From assembly GCA_021325385.1 (NCBI GenBank), contig JAJPHH010000120.1:1-58763 (forward strand): DNA of 58,763 bases, read 5' to 3'. Position numbers and translations under genes: made by a program. Positions 428 through 49,539 of the stretch are shown in pieces. Position 1 is the first letter of the stretch; every line of letters starts with the position of its first letter. The notes beneath the pieces were generated by a model. That model saw only the letters and a list, made by a program, of their open reading frames with translations. It made no database searches and had not been told where the DNA came from. Origin of the DNA: Alphaproteobacteria bacterium (GTDB lineage Bacteria > Pseudomonadota > Alphaproteobacteria > Rhizobiales > Beijerinckiaceae).

Positions 428-985
428 GTCATTCCCGCGCAAGCGCAGGGCTGTCCGGGGAAAGGCCTGCGCCTTGGTCCGGCGACTTGGCTTGCTTTCA
501 ACACCGCGGCGCCACGCCGCCCGATCGCCGTCAACCCGCCATGGCGGCACAAAGGTACGTGCAACACGATGTCTGCCCGCGCGGCGCCATGGCGGGTGCT
601 CCGCTTGCGCTCCGCCCCTTCCGAGTGACGGCGACCGCTCGGCGTGGCTATTGGCGACCAAGACGTTTTGCTGCCGAAACCGGCCGTTCGGCCGTTTCGA
701 GCAGCAAAACGTCTTGGTTGCAAAAAGGCCATCGAGGCGGGCGCGGGTCAATGTTCGCGAAGCGGAGCGGAGCGACCGGCGAAGCCGGCTCGGCCTTGAG
801 GCGCGCCCGCCTCGATGGCGGCGCGGTGTTCGGGATTTGCTTTCTCGAGCGCGCTCGTTACTGAGTCTAGCTCGTCAGAAGCCCGCGAATAAACTCGATA
901 TCGCCCTGTTTCGCGACCGGCGCGCTCCGGGCGTCAAATTTGCCCTCATTTTCCCCGGACAGCCCTGCGCTTGCGCGGGAATGAC
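428..985. repeat. 558-bp palindromic element (36-bp perfect terminal inverted repeats, three internal hairpins)
   Basis: Bases 428-463 and 950-985 are perfect 36-bp inverted repeats containing ATTCCCGCGCAAGCGCAGGG. Between them lie three hairpins: 511-648 (with a 13-bp perfect stem 534-546/585-597 and outer pairing CGCCGTCA/TGACGGCG), 651-718 (stem 657-680/694-718 with one bulged base), and 729-818 (17-bp perfect stem 729-745/802-818). The order and linkers match repeats near 47.5 and 49.2 kb. No believable gene lies inside it. It looks like a non-autonomous interspersed repeat inserted in the yej operon; I saw no clear target duplication. Confidence 0.85.
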
Positions 986-1011
986 ACAGCGCAGCGCGAC
1001 AGGTTGAAGCC

Positions 1012-2094
1012 TTGCTCGCCTATATCGCCCGCCGCATCCTGTTGATGGTCCCGACCATCTTCGGCATCATCCTTATCTCCTTCATCATCGTGCAATTCGT
1101 GCCGGGCGGGCCGGTCGAGCGGGCCATAGCCCAATTGCAAGGCCTTGACGAAAGCGGGCGAGGCGGCGCGATGATGGGAGCGGCCGCCGCCCATGTCGGC
1201 GACATTTCTTCGCGCTATCGCGGCGCGCAAGGCCTCGATCCGAAATTCATCAAGGAGCTCGAAAAACAATACGGCTTCGACAAGCCGGCCACCGAGCGGT
1301 TTTGGCTTCTGGTCAAGAACTACGCGACCTTCAGTCTCGGCGACAGCTATTTTCGCAACGAACCAGTCTTGAAGCTGGTGCGCGAGAAACTGCCCGTCTC
1401 GATCTCGCTCGGCGTGTGGATGACCCTGATCTCCTACGCGATCTCCATTCCGCTCGGCATTCGGAAGGCGGTGAAAGACGGATCCCGCTTCGACACTTGG
1501 ACCTCCGGCGTCATCATCGTCGGCTACGCCATACCGAGCTTCCTATTCGCCATTTTGCTGATCGTGCTGTTTTGCGGCGGCTCCTTCTGGCAAATCTTCC
1601 CGTTGCGCGGCCTGACCTCGGATAATTTCGCCGATCTCTCCTGGCCGCAAAAGGTCGTCGACTACCTCTGGCACGTTACGCTTCCCGTCGCCGCCCTGGT
1701 CCTCGGTTCGTTTGCGACGACGACGCTTTTGACCAAGAACTCGTTCCTTGACGAGATCAAGAAAGCCTATGTGCAGACGGCGCGGATGAAGGGCCTAACC
1801 GAGCGCCAAGTGCTCTACGGCCATGTCTTCCGCAATGCGATGCTGATCGTCATCGCCGGCTTCCCCGGCGCGTTCATCGGCGCTTTCTTTACCGGCTCCC
1901 TGCTCATCGAGAAGGTCTTCACGCTCGACGGCCTCGGCTATCTCTCTTACGATTCGCTGATGAACCGCGACTATCCGGTGGTCCTCGGCAACCTCTACAT
2001 TTTCTCTCTTCTCGGTCTTGTCGTAAATCTGATCTCCGACCTCACCTACACCGTGATCGATCCGCGCATCGATTTCGAGACGCGGGAGGTCTGA
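1012..2094 (+). CDS. yejB: YejB, inner-membrane permease of peptide ABC transporter
   Basis: Permease subunit (360 aa, usual length) of the YejABEF oligopeptide importer. The N-terminus [18 protein letters not shown] followed by [10 protein letters not shown] is characteristic of YejB, and it fixes the TTG at 1012 as the start. Several hydrophobic segments follow, and the cytoplasmic EAA-type loop ([20 protein letters not shown]) near residues 250-275 would contact the ATPase. It is one base from yejE. The right end of the palindromic element lies only 26 bp upstream, so its original link to yejA transcription has been altered. Confidence 0.92.
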
Positions 2095-2095
2095 C

Positions 2096-3261
2096 ATGGA
2101 CGCGACGCCGCTCGCGCCTCCCCGCGCTTTCTCTCATGGTTGGCTCCGGCTCGGGCCGATGGGCCGGAGGCGGCTTGACAATTTTCGCCGCAACCGGCGC
2201 GGCTATTGGTCGGCTTGGATTTTCTGCGTTCTTTTCGGCCTGTCGCTGTTCGCGGAGTTCATCGCCAACGACAAGCCGATCGTCGCCTCGTACCAGGGCG
2301 AGCTGCTGTTTCCGATCTTCGTCAATTATCCGGAAGAGAAATTCGGCGGTTTCCTCGCCGAGACGGACTATCGCGATCCGACCATCGCCAATGAAATCGC
2401 GGCGCATGGCTGGATGATCTGGCCGCCGATTCGCTTCGCCAACAACACGCGCAATCTCGACCTGCCGACGCCGGCGCCCTCGCCGCCGACATGGATGCTG
2501 AGCGAGGCGCAGTGCCAGGCGGCGCTGAAAGCGATCGAATCGCGCGATCCGCAAAAGACCGTCAAAGGCCCGGGCTCCTGCCGCGACCTCGAATGGAACT
2601 GGCTCGGCACGGACGATTCCGGCCGCGACGTGCTGGCGCGCGTGATCTACGGTTTTCGCCTCTCGCTGGTCTTCGGCCTCATCCTCGCCGGCGTCTCCTC
2701 GATCGTCGGCGTCGCCGCTGGCGCGGTGCAAGGCTATTTCGGCGGCTGGCTCGATCTGACCATGCAACGGCTGATCGAAATCTGGTCGTCGCTGCCGCAT
2801 CTCTACATCTTGATCATTCTATCGGCGATCCTCGCGCCGAGCTTTTTGCTCCTCCTGTTCATCCTGCTGCTGTTCTCCTGGGTCAGCCTCGTCCATCTCG
2901 TCAGAGCGGAGTTCCTGCGCGCGCGCAATTTCGAGTATGTCAACGCCGCCCGGGCGCTCGGCCTCTCCAACGGCAAGATCATCGTCAAGCACGTCCTGCC
3001 CAACGCCATGGTGGCGACGCTGACGTTCCTGCCGTTCATCGTCAATTCCTCGATCGGCACATTGACCTCGCTTGATTTCCTCGGGCTCGGCATGCCGCCG
3101 GGCACGCCGTCGCTCGGCGAATTGCTGCTGGAGGGGAAAAACAACCTGTCGGCGCCGTGGCTCGGCCTTACCGGGTTCTTCGTCGTCGCGGTCATGATGT
3201 CGCTGCTCGTCTTCATCGGCGAAGCGGTGCGCGACGCGTTCGATCCGCGGAAGACTTTCGC

Positions 3262-3265
<4 letters not shown>
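2096..3265 (+). CDS. yejE: YejE, second permease of peptide ABC transporter
   Basis: Second inner-membrane permease (389 aa) of the Yej importer. It has a first membrane segment around residues 38-58 and then a long periplasmic insert (about residues 60-190), as is typical of YejE. Four to five membrane helices follow, with the EAA loop NAARALGLSNGKIIVKHVLP near residue 285. The motif GTDDSGRDVLARVIYG, common to oligopeptide permeases of the DppC/OppC type, precedes the membrane core. The ATG sits one base after the yejB stop, and the stop overlaps the yejF start, so the three genes are translationally coupled. Confidence 0.92.
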
Positions 3266-4884
<1,619 letters not shown>

Positions 4885-4947
4885 GTCAGGTACGTCCTTG
4901 TTGCGCAAGCAGCGAGAGGGGCGCCGGTGGCATAAAAGGGGAACGTC

Positions 4948-6165
4948 ATGGGCCGCGCCCTTCTCATCGTGCTCGATTCCGTCGGCTGCGGCGGCGCAGA
5001 GGATGCGGCTTCCTACGGCGATCAGGGCGCCGATACGCTCGGCCATATCGCGGCGGCTTGCGCCGAGGGCCGCGGCGACCGCGACGGCCTGCGGCGAGGC
5101 CCGCTCGCTTTGCCCAATCTGGATCGCCTCGGCCTCGGCCGCGCCATGGCGGCCTCGACCGGCCGCAAGCCGCCGGGCCTCGGCGAGGTCGAGCCGATCG
5201 GCCAGTGGGGCTACGGCGTTGAGACCTCGCTCGGCAAGGACACGCCGTCGGGCCATTGGGAAATCGCCGGCACGCCGGTGCGCTTCCAATGGGGCTATTT
5301 CCCGCCAACCATTCCCGCCTTCCCGTCAACTCTCACCAAGGCGCTGATCGAAGAAGCGCGATTGCCGGGCATTCTCGGCGACAGCCGCGCGTCCGGCACG
5401 GACGTGATCGACGAGTTCGGCGAGGAGCATTTAAGGACGCTGAAGCCGATCTGTTACACCTCGGCCGATTCCGTGCTGCAGATCGCGGCGCATGAGGAGG
5501 CTTTCGGCCTCGAGCAGCTATACGAGCTTTGCCGCATCGCGCGCCGGCTTTGCGATCCGCTGAAGATCGGTCGCGTCATCGCCCGGCCCTTCGTCGGCCG
5601 CGCCAAGGGCGAATTCGCGCGCACGCCGCGGCGCAAGGATTTCGCCATGCCGCCGCCGCCGGGCAACATTTTCGAGCGCGCCGCCGCGGCCGGCCGCGAC
5701 ATCGTCTCGGTCGGCAAGATCGGCGACATATTCGCCCATAGCCATACCGGCCGCGAGCTCAAGGGCGCGAGCAACATGGCTCACGTCGATCTGACGCTGG
5801 CGGCCTTGGCGAGTGCTGGAGACGGCGGACTGATTTTCGTCAATCTCGTCGATTTCGACACCGAATACGGCCATCGCCGCGATGTCCCCGGCTACGCCGC
5901 TTCCCTCGAAGCCTTTGATCGTCGCCTGCCTGAAATCGCGGCGGCGATGCATGGCGACGATTACGCCGTCATCACCGCCGATCACGGCAACGATCCGACC
6001 TGGCGCGGCTTCGACCATACGCGCGAGCATGTCCCGATCCTCGCCTTCGGCTCCGGCGCCAGAGCCGGGCCGATCGGCCGGCGCGAGACTCTCGCCGACA
6101 TCGCCCAGACCCTGTCGAAAAAACTCGACCTCCCGCCCGGACAGGACGGCCAGAGCTGGATTTGA
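4948..6165 (+). CDS. deoB: Phosphopentomutase
   Basis: Cytoplasmic enzyme (405 aa) interconverting ribose or deoxyribose 1-phosphate and 5-phosphate in nucleoside salvage. It belongs to the alkaline-phosphatase superfamily: the N-terminal [11 protein letters not shown] contains the first metal ligand, GHWEIAG lies in the middle, and [17 protein letters not shown] followed by [10 protein letters not shown] carries the C-terminal Asp/His metal ligands. The length is normal. AAAGGGGAA precedes the ATG. A HIT protein gene follows after 3 bp, probably co-transcribed. Confidence 0.96.
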
Positions 6166-6168
6166 GAA

Positions 6169-6591
6169 ATGCCCGGTTTCGTACTCGACGAGCGCCTGGC
6201 GGCCGATACGATCGCGCTCGGTGATGCGCGTTTGTCGCGCCTGCTGCTGATGAACGACCGGCGCTTTCCGTGGCTGATTCTCGTCCCGCGCCGCGCCAAC
6301 GCCGTCGAACTCTTCGACCTTGCGTCGGAGGAGCGCGCGCTTCTCGTCGAGGAGATCGCCCAAGTGTCAAAAAAGCTGTCGCAGCGCGTCGGCGTCGAAA
6401 AGATCAATGTCGCCGCGCTCGGCAATATGGTGCGGCAACTGCACGTCCATGTGATCGGCCGGGCGAAGCACGATGCGGCCTGGCCCGGCCCGGTCTGGGG
6501 CGCGGGCGCGCGCCAACCCTATGAAGCGGCGGACGCGCAGCGCCTGTCGGATGAACTGGCGGAAGCCATGGCTCATATTTTAGTCGATTGA
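6169..6591 (+). CDS. HIT-domain nucleotide hydrolase/transferase family protein
   Basis: Single HIT-domain protein of 140 aa. The histidine triad region reads QLHVHVIGR, so the first triad histidine is glutamine while the central (nucleophilic) and third positions are kept. This variant is frequent in alphaproteobacterial HIT proteins. The family cleaves or transfers nucleoside monophosphates; the substrate cannot be predicted here. It starts 3 bp after the deoB stop, suggesting a shared transcript with nucleoside salvage. About 130 bp without a gene follow; a short GCGCGA/TCGCGC hairpin lies just after the stop but has no T-run. Confidence 0.9.
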   Translation: MPGFVLDERLAADTIALGDARLSRLLLMNDRRFPWLILVPRRANAVELFDLASEERALLVEEIAQVSKKLSQRVGVEKINVAALGNMVRQLHVHVIGRAKHDAAWPGPVWGAGARQPYEAADAQRLSDELAEAMAHILVD

Positions 6592-6724
6592 GCGCGAAAT
6601 CGCGCCGAATTCCCGGCGCCCGCGCCTAAGCGCCGCAGCGCCCGGCAGCGCAAGTTCTCGAGCCGGATAGCGCCTTGCGCGAGCGGGAGGTCGCGACTAG
6701 TGTCCGCGCCGAAAAAACCCGACC

Positions 6725-7732
6725 ATGTCGCAAGGTCCGAATTTCGAGAGCGCAATGTCGATCTCTTCTTCTTCCGCCGATCATATTGTCGACCGCCGGC
6801 GCATGCGCCGGCAGGTGACGTTCTGGCGCGCCGCGGCCTTCGTCGTTCTCGCGCTGGCGATCATCGGCTTGGGCTGGCGCTATAGCGGACTGCCGACCGG
6901 CTCTCGCCTCGAGCCTCACATTGCGAGGGTCACGATCACCGGCCTGATCACCGGCGACGATGCGTCGCTGAAAATGCTGCGCGACATCCGCACGTCCAAC
7001 GCCAAAGCCGTCTTGCTGCGCATTTCCAGCCCGGGCGGGACGACCGCCGGCGCGGAACGGCTTTATGACGAATTGCGCCGGCTCGCCGCCAAGAAGCCGG
7101 TCGTCGCCGAGGTCGATACGATGGCGGCGTCCGGCGCCTATATCGCGGCGCTCGGCGCGGACCGGATTTTCGCGCTGGGCAATTCGCTGGTCGGTTCGAT
7201 CGGCGTGCTCGTCCAATATCCGAACTTCGCCGGCCTCCTCGACAAGATCGGCGTCAAATACGAGGCGGTCAAATCGTCGCCGCTCAAGGCCGAGCCGAAC
7301 GGCTTCGAACCGACGAGCGAACAAGCGCGCGCGGCGATGGCCTCGCTGGTCGGCGACAGCTACGAATGGTTCAAGAAGCTGGTGAAGGACCGCCGGAGCC
7401 TATCCGACAACGAATTGGCCGCGGTCGATGATGGCCGGGTCTTTACCGGCCGTCAGGGTCTTGACCTGAAGCTTATCGATGCGATCGGCGGCGAGCGCGA
7501 CGCGATCGCTTGGCTCGAAACTCAAAAAGGCGTCGCCAAGGACCTTCCGGTGCTCGATTGGAAGCCCGACAGCGGGCTGAGCGGCTTCGCGCTCTTCGGC
7601 TCGGCCGCGGCGGTCGCCGATTGGCTCGGCCTGACGACGATCGGGACGCTTTTGCGCCAAAGCGAGCTGGCCGGCGAGAGTCAATTGCTTGACGGTCTTG
7701 TGTCGATTTGGCAGCTTCCTAATCGAGACTGA
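6725..7732 (+). CDS. sppA: Signal peptide peptidase SppA, short form (S49 family)
   Basis: Membrane-anchored serine protease (335 aa from ATG 6725) that degrades cleaved signal peptides. A basic N-terminus is followed by one membrane segment (about residues 33-50), then the S49 domain: [15 protein letters not shown], the nucleophile serine in MAASGAYIA (about residue 136), and the general-base lysine in SSPLKAEPN (about residue 188). This is the single-domain form of about 300-335 aa, not the double-length E. coli protein. An ATG at 6755 (MSISSSS) is an equally possible start. ihfB follows, as is common in alphaproteobacteria. Confidence 0.88.
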
Positions 7733-7784
7733 GTGGAAATTCCGCCCGCGCGTCCTTTGCCGGCCGCCAATGATGGGGAATCCA

Positions 7785-8075
7785 TTGATTAAGTCCGAAC
7801 TGGTGCAGCGGATGGCCGCGCGCAATCCGCATCTCTACCAGCGCGACGTCGAAAACATTGTCGACGCCATTCTCGACGAGATCACGGCCGCTCTGGCGCG
7901 CGGGGAAAGGGTTGAATTGCGCGGCTTCGGCGCGTTCTCGACCAAGCAACGCGCCGCCCGTACGGGACGCAATCCGCGCACCGGCGACCAGGTGCCGGTG
8001 ATCGAAAAGGTCGTCCCCTTCTTCAAGACGGGCAAGGAAATGCGCGAGCGGCTCAACAAGGGCGTCGACGGCTGA
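7785..8075 (+). CDS. ihfB: Integration host factor subunit beta
   Basis: DNA-bending HU/IHF-family protein (96 aa). [20 protein letters not shown] is the typical N-terminus, and ELRGFGAFS plus [13 protein letters not shown] cover the DNA-binding beta arm with its intercalating proline. I chose the TTG at 7785 because family members begin MIKSELV and GGGGAA (7775-7780) lies at ribosome-binding distance; ATGs at 7770 and 7773 would add four or five residues. With IHF-alpha encoded elsewhere it bends DNA, for example at sigma-54 promoters such as those used by the NtrC-type regulator in this window. Confidence 0.92.
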
Positions 8076-8088
8076 CGCGGCGATTTGA

Positions 8089-8391
8089 ATGTTGAGGGCC
8101 GCGAAATTCGTCGTTCTTGCGCTCGTCGCCGTCGTCCTCCTGCTTTTTGCTTTCGCCAATCGGCAAATCATCGACGTATCGTTCGATCCTTTCGCGTCGA
8201 ATGGCGCGCCGGCCTTCGCCGTCGCAGCGCCGCTTTTTCTTGTTCTGATGATCGCGCTGATCCTCGGCGTCATGGTCGGCGGCGCGGCGGTTTGGCTGAG
8301 TCAAGGCAGGTTTCGCAAAGCTGCGCGGCTGCGCCGCGCGGAAGTCGAACGACTGCGCAGCCAGTCCGCTGGCGTACCGAGCGTCCACTGA
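8089..8391 (+). CDS. LapA-domain (DUF1049) small inner-membrane protein
   Basis: Small protein of 100 aa with two hydrophobic helices (about residues 5-25 and 44-70), a short periplasmic loop beginning NRQIIDVSFDPF, and a basic C-terminal tail (RLRRAEVERLR) likely to be helical in the cytoplasm. This is the layout of the lipopolysaccharide-assembly protein A domain. E. coli LapA works with LapB in controlling LpxC; no lapB is nearby, so only the domain call is safe. It starts 13 bp after ihfB, with which it probably shares a transcript. Confidence 0.8.
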   Translation: MLRAAKFVVLALVAVVLLLFAFANRQIIDVSFDPFASNGAPAFAVAAPLFLVLMIALILGVMVGGAAVWLSQGRFRKAARLRRAEVERLRSQSAGVPSVH

Positions 8392-8443
8392 CCGCGATGT
8401 ATCTGCGCGCTCGTTCTGATCTCGCCGTCAAGCGAGGCGCGCC

Positions 8444-9391
8444 ATGCAACTGATCGACGCGAAGGCGATCGACGGGCGGCTCGATTTTCCCCGTTTGATC
8501 GACGCGCTGGCCGAGGCGTTTCGCGGCGACCTCGCCGCGCCCGAGCGCGCCCATCATCGCATCGAGCGGCCCGGCGGCGCTGCGGCGACGCATCTGCTGA
8601 TGCCGGCTTGGACGACGTCCGCTGCTCGTCACGACGCGTTTCTCGGCACGAAAATCGTCAGCGTCTTTCCCGACAACGCTTCGCGCGGCCTGCCCGCGGT
8701 CCACGGCCTCTACGTGCTGCAGTCCGGCGAGACGGGCGAGCCTCTGGCGGCGATCGACGGAACGCGACTGACGCAATGGCGCACCGCCGCAGCCTCCGCT
8801 CTCGCCGCGCGCTTCCTCGCCAGAGGCGACGCGCGCCGCTTGCTCATGGTCGGCGCCGGCGCGATGGCGCCGTTTCTGATCGGAGCGCATCGCGCCGTCC
8901 GACCGATCGCCGAAATCGCACTTTGGAACCATCATCGCGCCGGCGCGGAGCGGCTCGCGCAAACGCTCGCCGGCGAGGGGTTGCGCGTTACGGTCGTCGA
9001 CGACCTCGAGGCGGCGGCGCGCGAAGCCGACGTGATTTCTTGCGCGACCTTGTCGACGTCGCCGCTGATCAAAGGCGATTGGCTCAGAAGCGGCCAGCAT
9101 GTCGACCTTGTCGGCGCTTTCAACCTTCAGATGCGAGAAGTCGACGATCCGGCCTTGCGGCGGGCGCGCATTTTCATCGATACCGAGGCGGCCTTGCGCG
9201 AGGGCGGCGATGTCGCTGCGGCGATCGCCGCCGGCGCGATCGACAAGCGTCATATCGTGGCCGATCTCGGGGCGTTGTGCTCCGGCGCAAGCGGGCGAAG
9301 GAGCGACGACGAGATCACGCTGTTCAAGTCGATCGGCGCGGCGGTCGAGGACCTGGCGGCGGCCATGCTGGTTTGGCGCGCTCGCGGGTGA
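8444..9391 (+). CDS. Ornithine cyclodeaminase / mu-crystallin family protein
   Basis: NAD(P)-dependent enzyme family protein of 315 aa. TRLTQWRTAAASALAA lies in the substrate region, and LLMVGAGAMAPFLI near residue 130 is the Rossmann dinucleotide motif, followed by the conserved pattern DLVGAFNLQMREVD. Members include ornithine cyclodeaminase, alanine dehydrogenase and imine reductases, so the exact substrate is open. GAGGCGCGCC precedes the ATG. It stands alone between the ihfB group and the convergent dehydrogenase gene; the 185 bp between the two stops hold nothing I recognise. Confidence 0.88.
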   Translation: MQLIDAKAIDGRLDFPRLIDALAEAFRGDLAAPERAHHRIERPGGAAATHLLMPAWTTSAARHDAFLGTKIVSVFPDNASRGLPAVHGLYVLQSGETGEPLAAIDGTRLTQWRTAAASALAARFLARGDARRLLMVGAGAMAPFLIGAHRAVRPIAEIALWNHHRAGAERLAQTLAGEGLRVTVVDDLEAAAREADVISCATLSTSPLIKGDWLRSGQHVDLVGAFNLQMREVDDPALRRARIFIDTEAALREGGDVAAAIAAGAIDKRHIVADLGALCSGASGRRSDDEITLFKSIGAAVEDLAAAMLVWRARG

Positions 9392-9576
9392 CGCGATCCG
9401 CCGCCGCGGCGCCCAGCGGGACGAGAACGTCATTCGCGCAAACAAGAACGTGGTACGAGCGGCTCTTTCGGCTCTTGCCGCGGCCATCGGCGTCGGTTGC
9501 GCCTTGTGAGCCTTGAAGCCCCCTTCAATCGTCGGCGGCGGAATTCCTCAGGCGAGGTTCGACGCGGTTGGGCGCT

Positions 9577-11935: not shown

Positions 11936-11977
11936 AGGTCTGCCTCCGCGTACGCGTCGAAAGCCAAGATCGTTCGC

Positions 11978-35984: not shown

Positions 35985-36014
35985 CGCGTGCACTCCGCCA
36001 AACGCAAGCCACGG

Positions 36015-36028: not shown

Positions 36029-36034
36029 AGGGAG

Positions 36035-39814: not shown

Positions 39815-39843
39815 TGGAGATTGAGGACGACGATCCGCCGATT

Positions 39844-39975: not shown

Positions 39976-39983
39976 GTGAGGCG

Positions 39984-41080: not shown

Positions 41081-41105
41081 CGCCGCGGATTTGTCGGCCG
41101 CCGCC

Positions 41106-41996
41106 TCAGGCGGATGCGATCTGGGCCAGAGAGTCCACGCGCCGCCATCGCGCCCGTCCTCGCCGCTGGATGTCGGCTTTTTCGGGGTCGATCATTTGGA
41201 GCCGATTCGAGATTGAAATGTCGCTGATCGTGTCCGAACGCGGCGCCGGCCGATCCGGAAATGCGGCTTCGAACTTCGCGGCGTCGATCACGACGCGACC
41301 GATCGGGGCGAGCTCCATCCGTTTATAATGCGCCGGCGAGCAGACGCCGGCGCGATTGAGATACCAGGTTCGCGGCGCTTCAAGGTCGGCCAGCGCGGGT
41401 CTCTGCGGCAGCGCGATCTCGATTACGAGCGGCCGGTACCAAGCGAGGAAATCGAAGACGAGGCCGCATTCGACCACCACGAAGACGCCCCAGCCGTCCT
41501 GTTGAAACTGCGGCCGCATCTCCTTCTTGCTCGCGAGATATGGATTGATCGGCCTTCCTTGCGATGATGGAAAGGCCAGAACGTCGCCGCTCTGCATCAG
41601 CAGCTTTTGCGGCGCCGTCATGGTCTTGCGCGTGGCGGGCGCGACCGGCGCGATCAGGCGCTGCCGCAATTCGAGCAGCATACGCTGTCGTTTTTCGAGC
41701 TCCTTCGGCGGCATGCCGAGGCTTTCCATCGCCTTCAGATCGACGCCTTCGGCAATGATCGCGAGCGCGCGCTCGCGCGCCTCCGGCAAATCGACGCCGC
41801 GTTTGGCGAATTGGTCGGCGACGACGAGCCAAAAGGTCGTGGCCTCGTCCGGGTCGGTCGACGCGCCGAATTCAGTTTCGCACAGCAGTTGAAGCAGGCG
41901 CGCGGGCTCGAAGGGAAGACGGACGACAGCCCCGATCATCGCCTTGAGATCCAAAGCGAGATCGTTCGAATAGAGTCCGGCGCCCCATGCGCCCAT
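41106..41996 (-). CDS. Conserved hypothetical protein, DUF4259-like N-terminus
   Basis: 296-aa protein without a recognisable catalytic motif. The start GAWGAGLYSNDLALDLKAM resembles the GxWGxGxFxND opening of DUF4259 proteins, although it is longer than those. The remainder has a helical middle part and a C-terminal region with beta-strand character (GWGVFVVVECGLVFDFLAWY). It is convergent with the DUF1989 gene, 25 bp apart. No function is proposed. Confidence 0.8.
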   Translation of the reverse strand: MGAWGAGLYSNDLALDLKAMIGAVVRLPFEPARLLQLLCETEFGASTDPDEATTFWLVVADQFAKRGVDLPEARERALAIIAEGVDLKAMESLGMPPKELEKRQRMLLELRQRLIAPVAPATRKTMTAPQKLLMQSGDVLAFPSSQGRPINPYLASKKEMRPQFQQDGWGVFVVVECGLVFDFLAWYRPLVIEIALPQRPALADLEAPRTWYLNRAGVCSPAHYKRMELAPIGRVVIDAAKFEAAFPDRPAPRSDTISDISISNRLQMIDPEKADIQRRGRARWRRVDSLAQIASA

Positions 41997-42047
41997 GGCG
42001 AATCCTCCTCTCGCAGGAAAAAACGGACCTTAACGCCGAACGAACCT

Positions 42048-43055
42048 CTAACCCAGCAACGCTCCGCTCGCCCGCAGCGCGCCGACCTCTTGCCGATTCC
42101 AGTTGTAGAGGACAGGAGCGACGTGCGGCGCAATCGCGGCGCGCTCGTCGTCGCGCAGCGGCAGAAGCTTCGCGATGACCGCCGCCATCGCGACCTCCGC
42201 CGCCCGCCCCGCGCCGTCGTCGCATTTGATCGCGACGCCGAGCCCGAGCTCGGGCAGGGCGCCGCAATAGACGCCCTCGGCGCCGGTCTTGACGAATGCG
42301 CGCGCGCCGAGCGCGGTCATGATCTCCGTGTCGAAGCCGCCAGTCCCGCGGACGAGGCGCGGGTGGGCGGCGCAGGCTGCGCGGATGCGGCGCGACGCAG
42401 CGGCGCGGCCAGGCTCGAGCCCTTCGCCCGTCCCGAACCGGGCGAAGGCGAACGCCAGAGCGCGGAGCGGAATCGCGTAGGTCGGAACAGCGCAGCCGTC
42501 GACCCCCCACGTCGCATCGTCAAGCGCGAGTCCGGTCATCGCGCTCAGCGCGGCCCGCACTTCGCGCTGCGCATGATGATCGTACTTCACGTAGCCTTTC
42601 GGCGAGACGCCGGCGGCGCAAGCCACGCAAAGAAAGCCGGCATGCTTGCCGGAGCAATTGTTGTGCAGGGCGCTCGCCGTTGCGCCCGACGCCGCCAGCG
42701 CGCGGGAAGCGGCGATATCGGCCGGCCAATGGATACCGCATTCGAGCGCGCTCTCGTCCAAGCCGCATTTGGCGAGCATGGAGCGCGCGGTCGCAACGTG
42801 AATCGGCTCGCCGGCATGCGACGAGCAAGCAAGCGCGATCTCGGCGTCGGTCAGCTTGTACTTCTCCGCGGCGCCCGACTCGACCAGCGGCAGCGCCTGC
42901 AGCGCCTTCACCGCCGAGCGCGGAAAGACCGCCGCCTCGACATTGCCGAGCGCGAGGACCGACTTGCCCTCGGAATCGCTCACCGCGACCGCGCCGCGAT
43001 GCCGGCTCTCGACACGCCCGCCGCGCGTCGCCTCGACGAGGACGGGATTGGTCAT
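42048..43055 (-). CDS. L-asparaginase, AnsA (Rhizobium etli) type
   Basis: 335-aa asparaginase II-family enzyme hydrolysing asparagine to aspartate and ammonia. The N-terminus NPVLVEATRGGRVESRHRG and the two Ser-Lys motifs, FPRSAVKALQALPL (SxxK) and NNCSGKHAGFL, are typical of the rhizobial class that is unrelated to the E. coli type. ATG 43055 (MTNPVLV) is chosen because upstream sequence runs into the repeat at 43088-43231. The gene lies downstream of that repeat and of the dehydrogenase gene on the same strand. Confidence 0.92.
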   Translation of the reverse strand: MTNPVLVEATRGGRVESRHRGAVAVSDSEGKSVLALGNVEAAVFPRSAVKALQALPLVESGAAEKYKLTDAEIALACSSHAGEPIHVATARSMLAKCGLDESALECGIHWPADIAASRALAASGATASALHNNCSGKHAGFLCVACAAGVSPKGYVKYDHHAQREVRAALSAMTGLALDDATWGVDGCAVPTYAIPLRALAFAFARFGTGEGLEPGRAAASRRIRAACAAHPRLVRGTGGFDTEIMTALGARAFVKTGAEGVYCGALPELGLGVAIKCDDGAGRAAEVAMAAVIAKLLPLRDDERAAIAPHVAPVLYNWNRQEVGALRASGALLG

Positions 43056-43087
43056 GGCGGGGAGCGATGTTTGATCGACGCCGCGAG

Positions 43088-43231
43088 CCCCCACCCGTAC
43101 CCTCCCCGCTTTGCGGGAGAGGGGGCTTCGGGCGTCGCGCCAACTGTGTTTCCAGCCCTGCCACGCGCAGGCGTTGGCCGCGGCGCGAAAGCCTCCCTCT
43201 CCCGCGAAGCGGGGGAGGGTACGGATGGGGG
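43088..43231. repeat. Interspersed inverted repeat, second copy
   Basis: Bases 43088-43127 and 43193-43231 are imperfect inverted arms with the core CCCTCCCCGCTTTGCGGGAGAGGG versus its partner with CGCGAAGCGGG (each quoted as a part: TTTGCGGGAGAGGG and CCCTCTCCCGCGAAGC). It is the same sequence type as 30390-30530. Here it lies between the dehydrogenase and asparaginase genes, 32 bp upstream of the asparaginase ATG. Confidence 0.8.
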
Positions 43232-43262
43232 TCGGCGCAGGCCTTGACCATTGCAAACCCTC

Positions 43263-44351
43263 CTAAGCCAACCTCTCCGCCACGGCCTTGCCCGCCGCGA
43301 CCGTGTCGGCCGGGCCGCCGAGATCGCGGGTGCGCAAGCGCGGCTCCTCCAGAGTGGCGACGATCGCGCCCTCGATCGCCCGCGCCGCTTCGCTCTCGCC
43401 AAGATGGTCGAGCATCATCGCCGCCGACCAGATTTGCGCGATCGGATTGGCTACCCCCTTGCCGGCTATGTCAGGGGCCGAGCCGTGCACCGGCTCGAAC
43501 AGCGAGGGAAATTCCCGCTCCGGATTGATGTTGCCCGACGGCGCGATGCCGATCGAGCCGGCGCAAGCCGGGCCTAGATCGGAGAGAATGTCGCCGAACA
43601 GGTTCGAGCCGACGACGACGTCGAACCAGTCGGGATGCAGCACGAAATGGGCGGTCAGGATGTCGATATGGTACTTATCCCAGCGCACGCCGGGATACGC
43701 CGCCGACACAGCCTCGACCCGCTCGTCCCAGAACGGCATCGTGATCGAAATGCCGTTCGACTTGGTCGCCGAGGTCAGATGCTTCTTCGGCCGCGACGCG
43801 GCGAGATCGAAGGCGAATTTCAAGATCCGGTCGACGCCATGGCGGGTCATCACCGTCTCCTGCACCACGGTCTCGCGGTCGGTCCCGGCGAAGATGCGGC
43901 CGCCGATCGAGGAATATTCGCCCTCGGTGTTCTCGCGCACGACATAGAAGTCGATGTCGCCCGGCTTGCGGTTGGCGAGCGGGCAGGGCGCGCCGGGCAT
44001 CAGGCGGACGGGGCGCAGATTGACGTATTGATCGAATTCGCGCCGCATCGGGATCAGCGAGCCCCAGAGCGAGACGTGATCGGGCACGATCGCCGGCCAG
44101 CCGACCGCGCCGAAGAAAATCGCGTCATGGCCTTTAAGCTGCGCCTGCCAATCGTCCGGCATCATCTTTTTGTGACGGAGCCAATAATCGACGCAGGCGA
44201 AATCGAACGAGGAGAAGTCCAGATCGAAGCGGAATTTCTTCGCCGCCGCTTCGAGCGCGCGCAAGCCCTCCGGGACGACCTCCTTGCCGATCCCGTCGCC
44301 CGGAATGACGGCGATGCGGTAGCGGCGGTTGGTCCGGGCGGTCGAATTCAC
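43263..44351 (-). CDS. Tartrate dehydrogenase / D-malate dehydrogenase family protein
   Basis: 362-aa NAD- and metal-dependent oxidoreductase of the isocitrate/isopropylmalate dehydrogenase superfamily. It begins RYRIAVIPGDGIGKEVVPEG and has DFYVVRENTEGEYSSIGGR and the metal-binding DVVVGSNLFGDILSDLGP. Tartrate dehydrogenase, D-malate dehydrogenase (DmlA) and close homologues share these motifs. GTG 44351 is chosen to give the normal length; an ATG at 44441 would add an atypical leader. The 252 bp upstream, toward the divergent MFS gene, have no other gene. Confidence 0.88.
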   Translation of the reverse strand: MNSTARTNRRYRIAVIPGDGIGKEVVPEGLRALEAAAKKFRFDLDFSSFDFACVDYWLRHKKMMPDDWQAQLKGHDAIFFGAVGWPAIVPDHVSLWGSLIPMRREFDQYVNLRPVRLMPGAPCPLANRKPGDIDFYVVRENTEGEYSSIGGRIFAGTDRETVVQETVMTRHGVDRILKFAFDLAASRPKKHLTSATKSNGISITMPFWDERVEAVSAAYPGVRWDKYHIDILTAHFVLHPDWFDVVVGSNLFGDILSDLGPACAGSIGIAPSGNINPEREFPSLFEPVHGSAPDIAGKGVANPIAQIWSAAMMLDHLGESEAARAIEGAIVATLEEPRLRTRDLGGPADTVAAGKAVAERLA

Positions 44352-44603
44352 GGGCGGCGGCTCCTGGCTGGCGGTTGACGGCGCGAGAATGGCCAAGGCA
44401 GAGCGTCTGTCAACGCGGACGGCGTGGAGGATGAAACGCAATCGAAACGATGGCGGATTGGCCCCCTGGAGCCGAATACTCCTCGTCGCTTCGTCGCGCT
44501 GAACGCGCGCTCGCGACTCATTCGAATTTCGTCGCAGGAATCGGGGAGCGCGCTTCGCGCCTTCGCCCTAGATCACGCGTCTCGTTTCGCCAACGGACGC
44601 GCC

Positions 44604-45836
44604 ATGACCTTCGAACCTCCCCGCCTGCCGGCCGCCTTCATCCGCCTCGCCTGGTCGAATCTCGCTGCGCAATGTTCGGAGCAGATGGCGCTCGCCGCCG
44701 CGACGATCGTCGCGGTTCTCGCGCTTGACGCCGGCGGCGCCGAGACCGGATTGCTGCAGACGGCGCAGACGCTTCCCTTCCTGCTCCTGTCTCTGCCGAT
44801 GGGCGTTGTCGCCGATCGCGTCTCGCGGCGCGGGCTGATGGTCGCCGCCGAAGCCGCCCGCGCGGCTTCGCTCGCGCTGACGCTCGCCCTTGTGGTCGCC
44901 GGCAAGCTGGATCTCGCTTTGCTCGCCGGCCTCGGCTTTCTCGGCGCGACCGGCACGGTCGCCTATAGCGTCGCCGCGCCCGCGCTCGTCCCGTTGCTCT
45001 CGCCGCGCGAGGCGCTGCCGCTCGCCAATCGCTGGCTGGAGCTGGCGCGCAGCGCCGCCTTCGCCGCCGGGCCGGCGATCGGCGGCGCCCTGGTCGGCTG
45101 GTCCGGCGCGCCGGCGGCCTATATCGTTGCGACGACGCTGTCGCTCGCCGCCGTCGTCACGCTGGCGCGCCTGCCGGCGGGCAAGCCGGCGGCGCAAGCA
45201 GGCCGCCGGCATCCGCTTCGCGATCTCGCCGAAGGCGCGCGTTTCGTCGTCGGCCATGCCTTGCTGCGTCCGCTGCTGGTCGTCGCGATCGTCTTCAACA
45301 CGTCATGGTTCGCGCTGCAGGCGGTCTATGCGCCCTACGCCGTTCACCATCTCGGCCTCGACGCGTCCGGCGTCGGCGCGACGCTCGGCGCCTATGGCGC
45401 AGGCATGATCGTCGGCGCGATCGGCGCGCCGAGCCTCGGCCGTATCTTCACCTTCGACGCCTCGATTGTGATTGGGCCGCTCTGCGGCCTGATCGCTTCC
45501 GTGTTGATGGCGTTGACTATCGTCGCGCCGTCCGGCCTCATCGCCGCCTTCAGCTTCTTTCTGTTCGGCGCCGGTCCGGTCGTCTGGGTGATCACGACGA
45601 CGACCTTGCGCCAGACGGTCACGCCCAACGCCATGCTTGGCCGCGTGTCTGCGATCATCGTCACCGCGACGATGGGCGCGCGGCCGCTTGGCGCGGCGCT
45701 CGGCTCGGCTCTCAGCGCAGCCTACGGCGTCGAGGCGTGCCTGGTCTTTTCGGCCGTCGGGTTTTTCGTGCAGTTCGCGGCGATCGTCGCCTCGGCGCCG
45801 CCGCGGCTCAAGGCGCTGCCCGAAGCGGCGGAGTGA
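44604..45836 (+). CDS. MFS transporter, EntS/DHA3-like
   Basis: 410-aa carrier with about twelve membrane segments. It opens PPRLPAAFIRLAWSNLAAQ and has the loop motif GVVADRVSRRGLMVAAEAAR between helices 2 and 3. This is the organisation of the DHA3 drug or siderophore exporters. ATG 44604 is chosen for good alignment with a normal MFS start; a longer frame begins at 44424. It ends 21 bp before a strong hairpin, and is convergent with DUF1127. The substrate is unknown. Confidence 0.87.
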   Translation: MTFEPPRLPAAFIRLAWSNLAAQCSEQMALAAATIVAVLALDAGGAETGLLQTAQTLPFLLLSLPMGVVADRVSRRGLMVAAEAARAASLALTLALVVAGKLDLALLAGLGFLGATGTVAYSVAAPALVPLLSPREALPLANRWLELARSAAFAAGPAIGGALVGWSGAPAAYIVATTLSLAAVVTLARLPAGKPAAQAGRRHPLRDLAEGARFVVGHALLRPLLVVAIVFNTSWFALQAVYAPYAVHHLGLDASGVGATLGAYGAGMIVGAIGAPSLGRIFTFDASIVIGPLCGLIASVLMALTIVAPSGLIAAFSFFLFGAGPVVWVITTTTLRQTVTPNAMLGRVSAIIVTATMGARPLGAALGSALSAAYGVEACLVFSAVGFFVQFAAIVASAPPRLKALPEAAE

Positions 45837-45847
45837 CGGCGCAGCGC

Positions 45848-45886
45848 AAATAAAAAGCGCCCGCCGGGGGAGGGGCCGGCGGGCGC
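45848..45886 (-). terminator. Rho-independent terminator of the DUF1127 gene (possibly bidirectional)
   Basis: GCGCCCGCCGG (45857-45867) and CCGGCGGGCGC (45876-45886) form an 11-bp perfect stem with an 8-base loop. Read on the minus strand the stem is followed by TTTTTATTT (45856-45848), a classical terminator for the DUF1127 transcript. On the plus strand it could also stop MFS transcripts, but there it lacks the T-run. Confidence 0.8.
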
Positions 45887-45960
45887 CTGAGACGCGGACG
45901 GGGGAGACTTTGGGAGGGAGGAGGGAAGCCTCCGGCCGCCCGCGAAACGGGGTTTAGGGC

Positions 45961-46125
45961 TTACGCTGCGACGGCGGTCCCCTGGCGAACGATGAACTCG
46001 ATGTCGCCGCGGCGGATGCCGATGTCGTTGAGCTCGCGGTCGCTGAGCTGGGAGAGCTCCTTGACGGCCTCGCGGTAGCGCAGCCAGGCGTGCAGCTTCT
46101 CGGTTAGGGTCTTGAACGGGGTCAT
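45961..46125 (-). CDS. DUF1127 small arginine-rich protein, 54 aa
   Basis: Small basic protein with the DUF1127 signature LSQLSDRELNDIGIRRGDIEF and a basic helix (LHAWLRYREAVKEL) before it. ATG 46125 has AGGAG 7 bp upstream. Members influence RNA turnover and stress or phosphate responses in alphaproteobacteria (CcaF1 of Rhodobacter is an RNA-binding example). It has its own terminator at 45848-45886 and a long AT-rich upstream region. The gene is monocistronic. Confidence 0.92.
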   Translation of the reverse strand: MTPFKTLTEKLHAWLRYREAVKELSQLSDRELNDIGIRRGDIEFIVRQGTAVAA

Positions 46126-46529
46126 TGCAGTGCTCCTGAATCTTTTTTCTTGCGGTTCGGACCGGACAATCAGGCAGCGTGCTCCTCGCGGGCCGCGCCG
46201 GCCTGACGCGGTGCAACATAAGCGGGGGCGGTCTGAATTTGTAGGGTGAAGTTTGGCCCTCAGACATGCATTATTTGCATGGATAGGATAATCGAATTTT
46301 AATGAATTTGGGCAAATCGCCTGCAATTTCGCCAGATATGACCAAATTTTACCCGTGAAATGCCTACTGGAAATTCTTATGGCGGTTTTAGGAATGCGAA
46401 AATTTCATGACAATTTGATGATGCGCCGCAGCATAGCTTCCCGTGGAGAAGGGGGAATTGCGGGCGAATGCGCGGGGCATCCCGCTCTGCTCGGCGGCTG
46501 GCATGTCAGGCGGCGGCTCAGATAGGAGC
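46126..46529 (-). promoter_or_regulatory. 404-bp AT-rich upstream region of the DUF1127 gene
   Basis: No gene is apparent. The part 46220-46440 is clearly less GC-rich than the surroundings. A palindrome CATGCA-TTATT-TGCATG (46265-46281) lies about 140 bp before the ATG. Just upstream on the minus strand TTGCCC and GATTAT, 16 bp apart, could be a promoter, putting the palindrome in an operator position and giving a long 5' leader. The region also includes the 3' end of the prmA transcript. Confidence 0.4.
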
Positions 46530-47441
46530 TTAGGGCCGATAAAGCAAGAGACTCGCCCAACCATCGAGCGTCAGCCGGTCGAGGAGGAAAAAGCCTTGCG
46601 CCCGCCAGGCGGAGAGGACGCCCGCGACGTCGCTTTCCAAGAGCCCGGAGAGGATCGCCTCGGCGCACGGCGCAGTCAGCGTCGCGACCGAAGGCGCGAG
46701 ACCCCGCAAGGGCCGCGCCAGGATATTGGCGAGGACGAGGTCGTAGGGTCCGCCCTGGCGCAATTCGCGCCGGGCGACGCCGCGCGCGAGCAAGGGGCGC
46801 ACCCAGCCGGCCACGCCATTGAGCCGGGCGTTCGCCGCAGCCGTTGCGACCGCGATCGGGTCGAGATCGCCGGCGGCGACCGGTCGGCGCAAAGCCTTGG
46901 CAGCGGCGATCGCCAGCACGCCCGTGCCGCAGCCGATATCGATCACGTGACGGGGCCGGCGGCGCCGCAGCGCGCGGTCAAGTAGCAACAGGCAGCCGCG
47001 CGTGGTGCCGTGATGACCGGTGCCGAAGGCGAGCGCCGCCTCGATCTCGACGGCCACATCGTTCGGCCGGATTCTGGCGCGGTCATGCGCGCCATGGACG
47101 AGAAAGCGGCCGGCCCTGACCGGGGCGAGGCCAGCCAGCGAGTTGGCGACCCAGTCGGCCTGCTCGGCGCGTCGGAACTCGACGCGCTGTGCGGCCTCCT
47201 CGCCCGCCGCGATCGCGACCAGCTCGCGCAGACTCGCCTCGTCGGGCTCGAAGCCGAAATAGGCCTCCACGATCCAGTCGCGGCGCCCTTGTGGCCCGGT
47301 CGCGCTCTCGAACGCGCTCGCCGCCGCTTCGGCCGGTTCGAAGCTCTCGACGATCAGATCGACGATCGCGCGGGCGCGACGCTCGTCGCAGACGAGGCGC
47401 AGGCGGTAGGCGGCGTTGTTGGGCGGCAGGCCTTCGAGCAT
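46530..47441 (-). CDS. prmA: Ribosomal protein L11 methyltransferase
   Basis: SAM-dependent enzyme (303 aa) that trimethylates ribosomal protein L11. The SAM motif is DIGCGTGVLAIAAAK, preceded by ALAFGTGHHGTTRGCL and followed by NILARPLRGLAP, which are PrmA hallmarks. The N-terminal third is the substrate-recognition domain. The length is normal. About 520 bp upstream, up to chrA, hold only repeats. Confidence 0.95.
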   Translation of the reverse strand: MLEGLPPNNAAYRLRLVCDERRARAIVDLIVESFEPAEAAASAFESATGPQGRRDWIVEAYFGFEPDEASLRELVAIAAGEEAAQRVEFRRAEQADWVANSLAGLAPVRAGRFLVHGAHDRARIRPNDVAVEIEAALAFGTGHHGTTRGCLLLLDRALRRRRPRHVIDIGCGTGVLAIAAAKALRRPVAAGDLDPIAVATAAANARLNGVAGWVRPLLARGVARRELRQGGPYDLVLANILARPLRGLAPSVATLTAPCAEAILSGLLESDVAGVLSAWRAQGFFLLDRLTLDGWASLLLYRP

Positions 47442-47528
47442 GGCGGCGAGGTCTTACGGTGGAATCGAAGGGCGGGGAAGGCGGGCGAAGGCCCGGTGCG
47501 TCGGGGCCCAATTTTCGAGCGCCGCGCT

Positions 47529-47861
47529 GCCTGAGCCGCGGGCGGGCGCCAAGGCCAAGCGCGCTTCGCGCGTCGCTCGCCATTCTTTGTTCGACGCAGA
47601 GCGATGGCTCGCGAGCCTTGACCCCCGCCCGCGGCTCAGGCTCCTTGGCGACCATGAACTTTGGTAATGAAACCGTCGGCCTCCCGACGCTTTCATCACC
47701 AAAGTTCATGGTAGCAGAAAAAGTCACATCGGCGCGGCGTCGTCATCCCGAAGGGGCCGAAACGAAGTGGAGGAGTATCCATAGCCCGTCGCGCAAAAGT
47801 ACGAAAGCCGCGCCCGGCGTTCAGGCGGGCTATGGACACTTGACGACGCCGGGCCGATGTG
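47529..47861. repeat. Three-hairpin mosaic repeat, copy 2 (upstream of chrA)
   Basis: Three consecutive hairpins: a perfect stem 47531-47546/47624-47639 (CTGAGCCGCGGGCGGG), a central hairpin 47645-47712 starting TTGGCGACCA with stem 47651-47672/47691-47712, and a third with outer stem 47725-47744/47842-47861 and inner stem 47778-47788/47826-47836 (TCCATAGCCCG). The central hairpin and its linkers match the copies at 651 and 49354, while the outer hairpins are different. No gene lies within. The 100 bp that follow should hold the chrA promoter. Confidence 0.82.
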
Positions 47862-47964
47862 GCCCCGCGGCGCGCCCGCGCTTTGGGACGTACCTTGATA
47901 TGTTGTTCGAACCATTTGATTTGCAGACCGCGTTCCTACGCCGCCAAGTTCGAGGCGCTGCGCC

Positions 47965-49164
47965 ATGACCTCCGCCCCGCCCGCCAAGTCCCCCGCCGGC
48001 TCGCCCCTCGAAGTCCTGCGCGCCTTCGCGCGGCTCGGACTCTCCTGCTTCGGCGGGCCGATCGCCCATATCGGTTATTTCCGCGACGAATTCGTCGTCC
48101 GCCGGCGCTGGCTCGACGAGCGCGCCTTCGCCGATCTCGTCGCGCTCTGCCAATTCCTGCCTGGCCCGGCTTCGAGCCAGGTCGGCTTCTCGCTCGGCCT
48201 CATGCGCGCCGGCTATCTCGGCGGCCTCGCCGCTTGGCTCGGCTTCACCCTGCCTTCGGCGATCCTGCTCGTCCTCTTCGCCTATGGCGCGAGCGCGCTG
48301 ACCGGCCCGATCGGCCAGAGTCTGCTGCACGGGCTCAAGCTGGTCGCGGTCGCGATCGTCGCTCAGGCGGTGCTCGGCATGGCCCGTACGCTCTGCCCGG
48401 ACAAGCAGCGGGCGTCGATCGCCGCCCTCGCTTTGATCCTGATCGCCGTCTCGCCCGCTTCGTCGAGCCAAGTCGGCGCGATCGTCCTTGGCGCGCTCGC
48501 CGGCCTTGCGTTCTGTCGCGGCGAAGCACGCGAAGCGTCCGAATCCTCCGCCTTCCCGATCACGCGGCGCATGGGCGTCGTTTTTCTCGTCGTCTTCCTG
48601 GCGCTCCTCGCTTTGTCCTTCGCGCCGGGGCGGGAGTTCGCGCTCGCTGCCGCCTTCTACCGTTCCGGCGCGCTCGTCTTCGGCGGCGGCCATGTCGTGC
48701 TGCCGCTGCTGCGCGCGGCCGTCGTCGCGCCGGGCTGGGTCACGGACGGCGCCTTTCTCGCCGGCTATGGCGCGGTTCAGGCCGCGCCCGGCCCGCTCTT
48801 CACCTTCTCCGCCTATCTCGGCGCGGTCGCTCATGTTCCACCCGGCGGAATCGCCGGCGCGGCTCTGGCGCTGGTCTCGATCTTCATCCCCGGCCTGCTC
48901 GCGCTGATGGCGGCTCTGCCCTTCTGGCGGCGCCTGAGCGGCCGCCAAAGCGCCCGCGCCGCCATGGCCGGCATCAACGCCGCCGTGGTCGGCCTGCTCG
49001 GCGCCGCGCTCTACAATCCCGTCTTCGTCAGCGCCGTGCAGAGTCCGGTTGATTTCGCCATCGCCGCCGCCGGCTTCGTCCTGCTCGTCGCCTGGCGCGC
49101 GCCGCCGCTTCTGGTCGTGGCGCTGACCGCCGCGGCGGGGGTGACGGAGGCGATGGTGGGGTGA
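47965..49164 (+). CDS. chrA: Chromate transporter ChrA
   Basis: 399-aa inner-membrane protein with the two homologous CHR halves. The first half has LGLSCFGGPIAHIGYFRDE and CQFLPGPASSQVGFSLG; the second has FGGGHVVLPLL and GYGAVQAAPGPLFTFSAYLG. About ten membrane helices are visible. The long-chain form exports chromate. The gene stands alone between two hairpin-repeat copies, in a 2-kb segment that could be an acquired cassette; its base use does not look different from its neighbours by eye. Confidence 0.93.
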   Translation: MTSAPPAKSPAGSPLEVLRAFARLGLSCFGGPIAHIGYFRDEFVVRRRWLDERAFADLVALCQFLPGPASSQVGFSLGLMRAGYLGGLAAWLGFTLPSAILLVLFAYGASALTGPIGQSLLHGLKLVAVAIVAQAVLGMARTLCPDKQRASIAALALILIAVSPASSSQVGAIVLGALAGLAFCRGEAREASESSAFPITRRMGVVFLVVFLALLALSFAPGREFALAAAFYRSGALVFGGGHVVLPLLRAAVVAPGWVTDGAFLAGYGAVQAAPGPLFTFSAYLGAVAHVPPGGIAGAALALVSIFIPGLLALMAALPFWRRLSGRQSARAAMAGINAAVVGLLGAALYNPVFVSAVQSPVDFAIAAAGFVLLVAWRAPPLLVVALTAAAGVTEAMVG

Positions 49165-49212
49165 TAGCGTGCGCCGCAAGGGCGGTCCGTACCATAACTG
49201 GAGAGGCCGAGG

Positions 49213-49539
49213 CGCCACGCCGGCCAAGCGCCGTCAACCCGCCATAGCGCCACCAGGCTCCTCGGATAAGGTACAACCATCTGCGAGGCGCTATGGCGGG
49301 TCCTCCGCTGCGCTGCGGCCCTCCGGGTGACGGCGCTTGGCCAGCGCGGCATGTTGGCGACCATGAACTTTGGTGATGAAACTGGGCTATTTGGCCCAGT
49401 TTCTTCACCAAAGTTCACGGTAGCAAAAAAGCCGTCGCCGCGCGGAGGCGTCAAGCCTCGCCTCGCCATCGCTCAGCGTGAAGGATTGCTCCGCGCTTGC
49501 CGTGGCGAGGCGACCGCGAAGCGGCTTGGGCTTGACGCC
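49213..49539. repeat. Three-hairpin mosaic repeat, copy 3 (downstream of chrA)
   Basis: First hairpin 49213-49349: inner 14-bp perfect stem 49237-49250/49288-49301 (ACCCGCCATAGCGC) and outer 15-bp perfect stem 49222-49236/49328-49342. Central hairpin 49354-49421, starting TTGGCGACCA, with a stem of about 28 bp. Third hairpin: 49447-49457/49529-49539 (GGCGTCAAGCC) with inner stem 49458-49468/49503-49513. The first hairpin matches the copy at 511-648, and the central one matches the copy at 47645. No gene lies within. Confidence 0.82.

What the first reader, a model, noticed from the sequence alone, without database searches (positions are those of the whole stretch)
511..49539. Family of three-hairpin mosaic repeats with conserved linkers and exchanged stems
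Three copies (511-818, 47529-47861, 49213-49539) each consist of three successive hairpins. The central hairpin always starts TTGGCGACCA and is followed by GGTWGCAAAAAR. At its centre GAAAC/GTTTC is also kept in copies 1 and 3, but the mid-stem is AGACGTTTTGCTGC in copy 1 and TGAACTTTGGTGAT in the others, replaced on both strands. The first hairpin differs by a paired change (ATGGCG/CGCCAT in copy 1, ATAGCG/CGCTAT in copy 3). The outer hairpins of copy 2 are unrelated to those of copies 1 and 3. So structure appears to be selected, and modules are swapped as units. Rhizobiaceae mosaic elements (RIME, ABC-type palindromes) are known; this particular arrangement I do not recognise.
Basis: partly seen in the sequence, partly recalled or inferred. 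Interest (0 to 1): 0.75.

Follow-up and report, generated by a model that had tools for sequence, protein, structure and literature searches.

The report
Three-hairpin mobile repeat in a methanotroph
A family of short, gene-less DNA repeats folds into three hairpins whose two arms change together; the evidence favours arms copying each other over selection on an RNA, so the family looks like a new but recognisable kind of bacterial mobile repeat.

Summary
The three copies are real and strongly structured (folding z -8.7 to -13.8). They belong to a repeat family of one genus, that of Methylocapsa sp. S129: 40 scored copy-1-type places and about 20 older copy-3-type places in this genome. A model of hairpin 3 matched 6 of 248 genomes of the family, all in this genus. 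Central stems covary strongly (20 of 27 pairs change on both sides), but this does not show selection on RNA: wobbles are rare, transversion-type double changes are as common as transition-type ones, some copies carry the hairpin interior flipped or one arm rewritten, and 1 of 42 single stem changes in recent copies is compensated. Copy 2's outer hairpins are the others' hairpins in reversed order. Copy 1 is larger than described (446-967), has terminal inverted repeats and sits in a REP-type palindrome; 7 of 18 such elements show a 10-bp direct duplication with at most one mismatch. No Y1/RAYT match in the genome. Best reading: a MITE-like nested palindrome, arms matched mainly by arm-to-arm copying. 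A mismatch bias in hairpin 1 that a minus-strand RNA would explain is unresolved.

The parts
428..445 (+). left half of a REP-type palindrome (GTCATTCCCGCGCAAGCG) in which copy 1 sits
446..464 (+). left terminal inverted repeat of copy 1 (CAGGGCTGTCCGGGGAAAG)
446..967 (+). copy 1, full element (c1 type, 522 bp)
511..648 (+). copy 1 hairpin H1 (branched)
651..727 (+). copy 1 central hairpin H2
728..820 (+). copy 1 hairpin H3
949..967 (-). right terminal inverted repeat of copy 1
968..985 (+). right REP half flanking copy 1, in inverted arrangement
47516..47880 (+). copy 2, outer hairpins in reversed order (H3'-H2-H1'); ends approximate
47645..47721 (+). copy 2 central hairpin H2
49203..49575 (+). 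copy 3, c3-type element without visible terminal inverted repeats
49354..49429 (+). copy 3 central hairpin H2
49431..49554 (+). copy 3 hairpin H3 (GCCGTCGCCG..CGGCGATGGC)

Best explanation
A genus-restricted, non-coding, MITE-like repeat made of nested palindromes. A three-hairpin core exists without visible ends (c3 type, older) and inside an element with about 18-bp terminal inverted repeats that has inserted into the loops of REP-type palindromes and spread recently (c1 type). Shown: copies, ends, REP flanks and duplications, paired change, flipped interiors. Inferred: movement by a transposase supplied in trans that prefers REP palindromes; stems kept matched mostly by copying one arm from the other (template switching or recombination within the hairpin); exchange between copies giving the mosaic. 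The copies are rarely between divergent genes.
For: 40 scored c1-type places, copy 1 included (40 of 177 candidates scored; several are contig-end pieces that may be halves of one copy), and about 20 c3-type places. In the held stretches 18 elements have both terminal repeats, 12 of them with the H2 word: 15 of 18 have REP-like flanks on both sides and 7 of 18 a direct duplication of at least 9 of 10 bases; it follows the local REP variant (CGCGAAAGCG in L148, CGCGCAAGCG in L016, L027, L149). H2 covariation: 20 of 27 pairs with two-sided change, 90.6% paired against 71.4% in shuffles and 32-45% in slid controls. In the same 31 rows 717 Watson-Crick, 14 G-T, 26 A-C and 50 other cells; two-sided pair types 14 transition-like, 16 transversion-like. 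Of 30 c1-type H2 interiors, L015, L008 and L028 are flipped versions of other copies' interiors, and L004 and L016 have one arm rewritten to match the other. c1 core singletons: 42 of 6931 stem cells, 21 of 2145 loop cells (p 0.07), 1 of 42 in stems compensated. 3 of 34 copies lie between divergent genes, background 39 of 175. Template switching as a maker and keeper of hairpins is described in PMC8794818 (abstract and section 7 read).
Against: No transposase with these terminal repeats was found; none was sought beyond the end matches. Most c3 starts lack the end word, so it is not shown that they moved by the same route. 5 of 18 elements have inverted rather than direct REP flanks, which needs later recombination. 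Counting all c1 variants, stems vary 3 to 5 times less than loops (0.015-0.030 against 0.063-0.107 per cell), and core singletons are about a third as frequent as those in the element's own flanks (63 of 9076 against 114 of 5142 cells, summed): constraint or homogenisation of the core is possible. In H2 of c1 copies G-T exceeds A-C (51 to 6), mostly one shared G-T pair and a second common one. H1 mismatches are biased to A/C in diverged copies and an unpaired H1 stretch shows no matching mutation bias.
Confidence: 0.55

Rival explanations
1. A family of structured RNAs read from the minus strand (order H3'-H2'-H1'), with pairing kept by selection on the RNA.
For: In H1, A/C mismatches exceed G/T ones: outer stem 23 to 3 (c3), 13 to 0 (S129), 10 to 0 (c1); inner stem 12 to 3 (c3), 9 to 3 (c1), 1 to 1 (S129). 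Leaving out one shared column, which gives 11 of the 23 and 8 of the 13, I count 22 to 3 cells and 12 to 3 columns in the 30 rows. A/C on the plus strand is G-U on the minus strand. An unpaired H1 stretch shows no such mutation bias (21 of the 30 rows). c3 cores fold slightly better on the minus strand (10 of 15, p 0.064), as do S129 cores (7 of 9, p 0.15). Stems vary less than loops in c1 copies.
Against: H2 has few mismatches of either kind (14 G-T and 26 A-C of 807). H3 goes the other way once its shared C/A column is left out (10 G/T to 4 A/C, counted; with it 14 to 5 A/C in c3, 7 to 2 in S129, 2 to 10 in c1). c1 distinct changes and singletons show no strand bias; c1 cores do not fold better on the minus strand (6 of 15). 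No Rfam family at the gathering score; only microRNA-precursor matches and one U3 match, all below it, at a laxer threshold.
Confidence: 0.22
2. Two-way transcript-end elements, kept palindromic because transcripts from both convergent genes must fold.
For: c3 copies lie between convergent genes in 9 of 16 intervals, background 37 of 175 (p 0.002); H2 mismatches favour neither strand strongly, which fits use of both.
Against: The terminator scan of 47450-49650 found 2 sites where shuffles give 2.3; c1 copies are mostly between co-directional genes (10 of 15), with convergent 5 of 15 not above background (p 0.19). The gene caller is crude.
Confidence: 0.12
3. REP/REPIN-type repeats moved by a RAYT (Y1) transposase.
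For: Palindromic, intergenic, REP-associated; 8 of 11 genomes of the genus have Y1 matches over the cut-off.
Against: No Y1 match in this genome, which has the most c1-type copies seen; the assembly is broken at many copies, so a missed gene is possible.
Confidence: 0.04

Closest known systems
Br-REP1 with its two flanking palindromes, Bradyrhizobium (Hahn et al. 2016, PMC5082802; passages seen)
   Same: Three successive palindromes, intergenic, many copies, first found at overlapping 3' ends of convergent genes; flanking palindromes also found apart.
   Different: Its 20-base central consensus does not occur in the window with up to 3 mismatches; the passages seen mention no terminal repeats or REP-loop insertion.
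Bacterial MITEs (reviews PMC2229807 and PMC10969869; passages seen), YPAL in particular
   Same: Non-coding, terminal inverted repeats, target duplications, stable stem-loops; YPAL targets span or adjoin dyad symmetry.
   Different: Over 500 bp in the full form, with a branched three-hairpin cargo; the same terminal repeats also carry a different cargo (L040, L158).
CGTC-tagged REPs (PMC3733652; passages seen) and insertion sequences that target REPs (PMC1525189; passages seen)
   Same: The insertion target reads like a CGTC-type REP; REP targeting is reported for five insertion-sequence families.
   Different: Here the inserted thing is a gene-less palindrome. That the target belongs to the CGTC superfamily was judged by eye.
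RIME and ABC elements of Rhizobiaceae
   Same: Palindromic mosaic intergenic repeats.
   Different: Sequence comparison not done.

Membership tests
MITE | no transposase gene, terminal inverted repeats | tested here: met
   18 elements with both ends in the held stretches, 233-716 bp, 12 with the H2 word. Not met for most c3-type starts.
MITE | target-site duplication | tested here: inconclusive
   7 of 18 with at least 9 of 10 direct matches; true length (4-10 bp) is ambiguous because the target is itself a palindrome
MITE | autonomous partner with the same ends | tested here: inconclusive
   67 end matches with up to 3 mismatches, 2 in the control; of 11 contig-end stretches compared with copy 1, 10 match and L162 does not; broken assembly
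REP/RAYT | Y1 transposase in the genome | tested here: not met
   0 of 1 genome at E 0.01
known structured RNA | match to an Rfam family | tested here: not met
   0 at gathering score in the whole window; matches below it are microRNA-precursor types and one U3
Br-REP1 | central consensus sequence | tested here: not met
   0 matches with up to 3 mismatches in the window
integron attC | integrase and attC sites | not tested
   not searched

The most novel reading that the evidence does not exclude
A hairpin-templated mobile element: each move passes through a fold-back strand on which one arm is recopied from the other, so that stems are rewritten as exact inverted repeats, interiors flip, outer modules swap ends, and new palindromes nest in the loops of old ones.
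Probability: 0.12. Interest if true: 0.8.

Novelty: new variant of a known kind. Interest (0 to 1): 0.45.

Why it matters
Paired change in stems is the usual proof of a functional RNA. Here a large covariation signal comes with flipped interiors, rewritten arms and few wobble intermediates, so the family is a natural test case for how far template switching alone can mimic RNA selection. It also shows gene-less palindromes inserted in the loops of other palindromes.

Tried and rejected
Rfam at gathering and lax thresholds: nothing useful. Plasmid search with copy 1: no match. Minimum energy of both strands as a test of the RNA strand: undecided. Promoter and terminator scan of 47450-49650: nothing above shuffles. 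Empty-site comparison: matches to the flanking genes are 32 nt apart in S129, but the genus is only 71-80% identical there, so it is no clean empty site. Module test: among 15 c3 copies halves of H1 and of H2 are linked (r 0.35 and 0.55) but halves of H3 are not (-0.11), so it has little power for H3; two comparisons between neighbouring hairpins were also positive (0.26 each, p 0.04 and 0.01), and with 5 c1 copies added H1-H2 is linked (0.40). The model R1 was built from hairpin 3 alone. Rows left out: the H2 alignment holds 31 sequences (2 c1, both with unusual interiors, 17 c3, 3 copy-2 class, 9 S129) and leaves out L081, L087 and L061; one search skipped copy 2 and L061 for want of the search word. 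The counts 9 of 16, 5 of 15 and 14 of 34 were entered by hand, with the three L030 copies counted once. Papers: eight searches ran; their listings and abstract starts showed no report of this repeat. Passages of PMC3794950 and PMC6119699 on repeats were seen: nothing relevant.

Full report
What is there. The three copies are real and fold far better than shuffled sequence. They belong to one repeat family. A search with copy 1 gave 40 places in its own genome, itself included, the others at 77-98% identity (40 of 177 candidates scored). Many of these lie at contig ends, so two places may be halves of one copy, and one (L037) is a hybrid with copy 3's type. Copy 3 stands for about 20 older places at roughly 70-80%. 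Copy 2 has two relatives of its own class, L051 and L056.

Where it occurs. A covariance model of hairpin 3 matched 6 of 248 genomes of the family, in 1 of 43 genera; those 6 are among 11 genomes of the genus. In the order it matched 1 of 397 genomes, the window's own, 142 genera being sampled. These searches score few candidates per genome, so copy numbers are lower bounds and weak matches may be lost. A 23-base word of hairpin 3 gave 10 stretches in the genome collection: Methylocapsa sp. S129 (8), a Hyphomicrobiales MAG (1) and the end of a contig in a MAG labelled Gammaproteobacteria (1). Contig lengths identify G010 as S129 and G006 as that Hyphomicrobiales MAG. One viral contig matched, by its flank at the same site as L053.

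Anatomy. H1 is a branched hairpin, H2 a single long one, H3 branched again. In S129 the inner stems of H1 and H3 are mostly short; in this genome most are longer, with a variable loop. A word of the type AAAGTAC or AAGGTAC is in 16 of 20 elements, by eye mostly in the H1 loop (whole elements searched). The c1 form lies between terminal inverted repeats, CAGGGCTGTCCGGGGAAA and its complement, inside palindromes of the REP type GTCATTCCCGCG[C/A]AAGCGGGAATCC. Of 18 elements with both ends, 12 have the H2 word; 15 have REP-like flanks on both sides, 7 a 10-base direct duplication with at most one mismatch, and 5 have the flanks inverted, copy 1 among them (the flank patterns were chosen after seeing the flanks). 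Two elements, L040 and L158, carry the same ends around a different hairpin cargo. Among c3-type starts only L037, and with one mismatch L044, has GGCTGTCCGG within 200 bp upstream, as does L055, a fragment; in S129 it is there, with at most one mismatch, in 5 of 14 starts.

Paired change. In 31 H2 sequences, 20 of 27 pairs change on both sides and 90.6% of cells are paired (shuffles 71.4%, slid controls 32-45%). Of 807 cells 14 are G-T and 26 A-C; two-sided pair types are 14 transition-like and 16 transversion-like. In a wider count without alignment, c3 had 10 G-T to 15 A-C, S129 5 to 8, but c1 51 to 6, mostly one shared G-T pair and a second common one. Among 30 c1-type H2 interiors, L015 equals the reverse complement of the commonest form but for one base, L008 equals it with one base added, and L028 is that of L004 but for two; L004 and L016 have a rewritten left arm. 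In c1 cores, singletons are 42 of 6931 stem cells and 21 of 2145 loop cells (p 0.07), and 1 of 42 in stems is compensated. I read this as stems matched mainly by copying between arms, as described for template switching (PMC8794818).

Against that reading. Counting all c1 variants, stems vary three to five times less than loops, and core singletons are about a third as frequent as in the element's flanks (63 of 9076 against 114 of 5142 cells, summed), so constraint or homogenisation of the core is possible. In H1, mismatches are mostly A/C: outer stem 23 to 3 (c3), 13 to 0 (S129), 10 to 0 (c1); inner stem 12 to 3 (c3), 9 to 3 (c1), 1 to 1 (S129). One shared column gives 11 of the 23 and 8 of the 13; without it I count 22 to 3 cells. 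A/C here is G-U on the other strand. An unpaired H1 stretch shows 24 C>T and 7 G>A cells in a C-rich sequence (21 of 30 rows), so a plain G>A bias does not explain it. H3 goes the other way without its shared column (10 G/T to 4 A/C), and c1 distinct changes in H1 show no bias (9 and 11). This is unresolved.

Mosaic. Distances of H1 and H3 among 15 c3 copies are uncorrelated (r -0.25), H1-H2 0.15 and H2-H3 0.12; with 5 c1 copies added H1-H2 is 0.40 and H2-H3 0.18. Halves of H1 and of H2 are linked within themselves, halves of H3 are not. L037 joins a c1-like H1 to a c3-like H3. Copy 2's class has H2 in the usual direction but the outer hairpins reversed.

Context. By a crude GC-based gene caller, c3 copies lie between convergent genes in 9 of 16 intervals (three copies in one interval counted once), against 37 of 175 in the surroundings (p 0.002); c1 copies in 5 of 15 (p 0.19); all types together 14 of 34 convergent and 3 of 34 divergent, background 39 of 175 divergent. 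In the window, copies 2 and 3 flank a chromate-transporter gene between prmA and uvrC.

Verdict. A new family of MITE-like nested palindromes in one methanotroph genus. What is unusual is the combination of REP-loop insertion, reversed outer modules and arm-rewritten stems. That the structure is selected as RNA is not shown. After checking, confidence in the best reading was lowered from 0.58 to 0.55 and the RNA rival raised from 0.20 to 0.22, because of the core-against-flank singleton rates.

Noticed in passing
window 47441-50032: Copies 2 and 3 flank a chromate-transporter gene lying between prmA and uvrC; matches to these two genes are 32 nt apart in S129 and 52-2620 nt apart in six other genomes of the genus: a variable spot.
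   Followed up: partly
L040:4492-4724, L158:1243-1477: Elements with the same terminal repeats but a different hairpin cargo, which by eye contains another REP-type pair.
   Followed up: partly
L147:1839-1861: A viral contig holds a copy at the same site as L053, so the site may lie in a prophage or the contig be mislabelled.
   Followed up: no
L119:4655-4677: An S129-like copy at the end of a contig from a MAG labelled Gammaproteobacteria; possible misbinning.
   Followed up: no
H1 outer stem, fourth pair, e.g. window copy 3: An A/C mismatch kept in most c3 copies and in 8 of 10 S129 copies, a G-U pair on the minus strand.
   Followed up: partly
L008:3905-4620: A 716-bp form with a second terminal-repeat-like start inside it and non-REP flanks CAATCC; nested insertion possible.
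   Followed up: no
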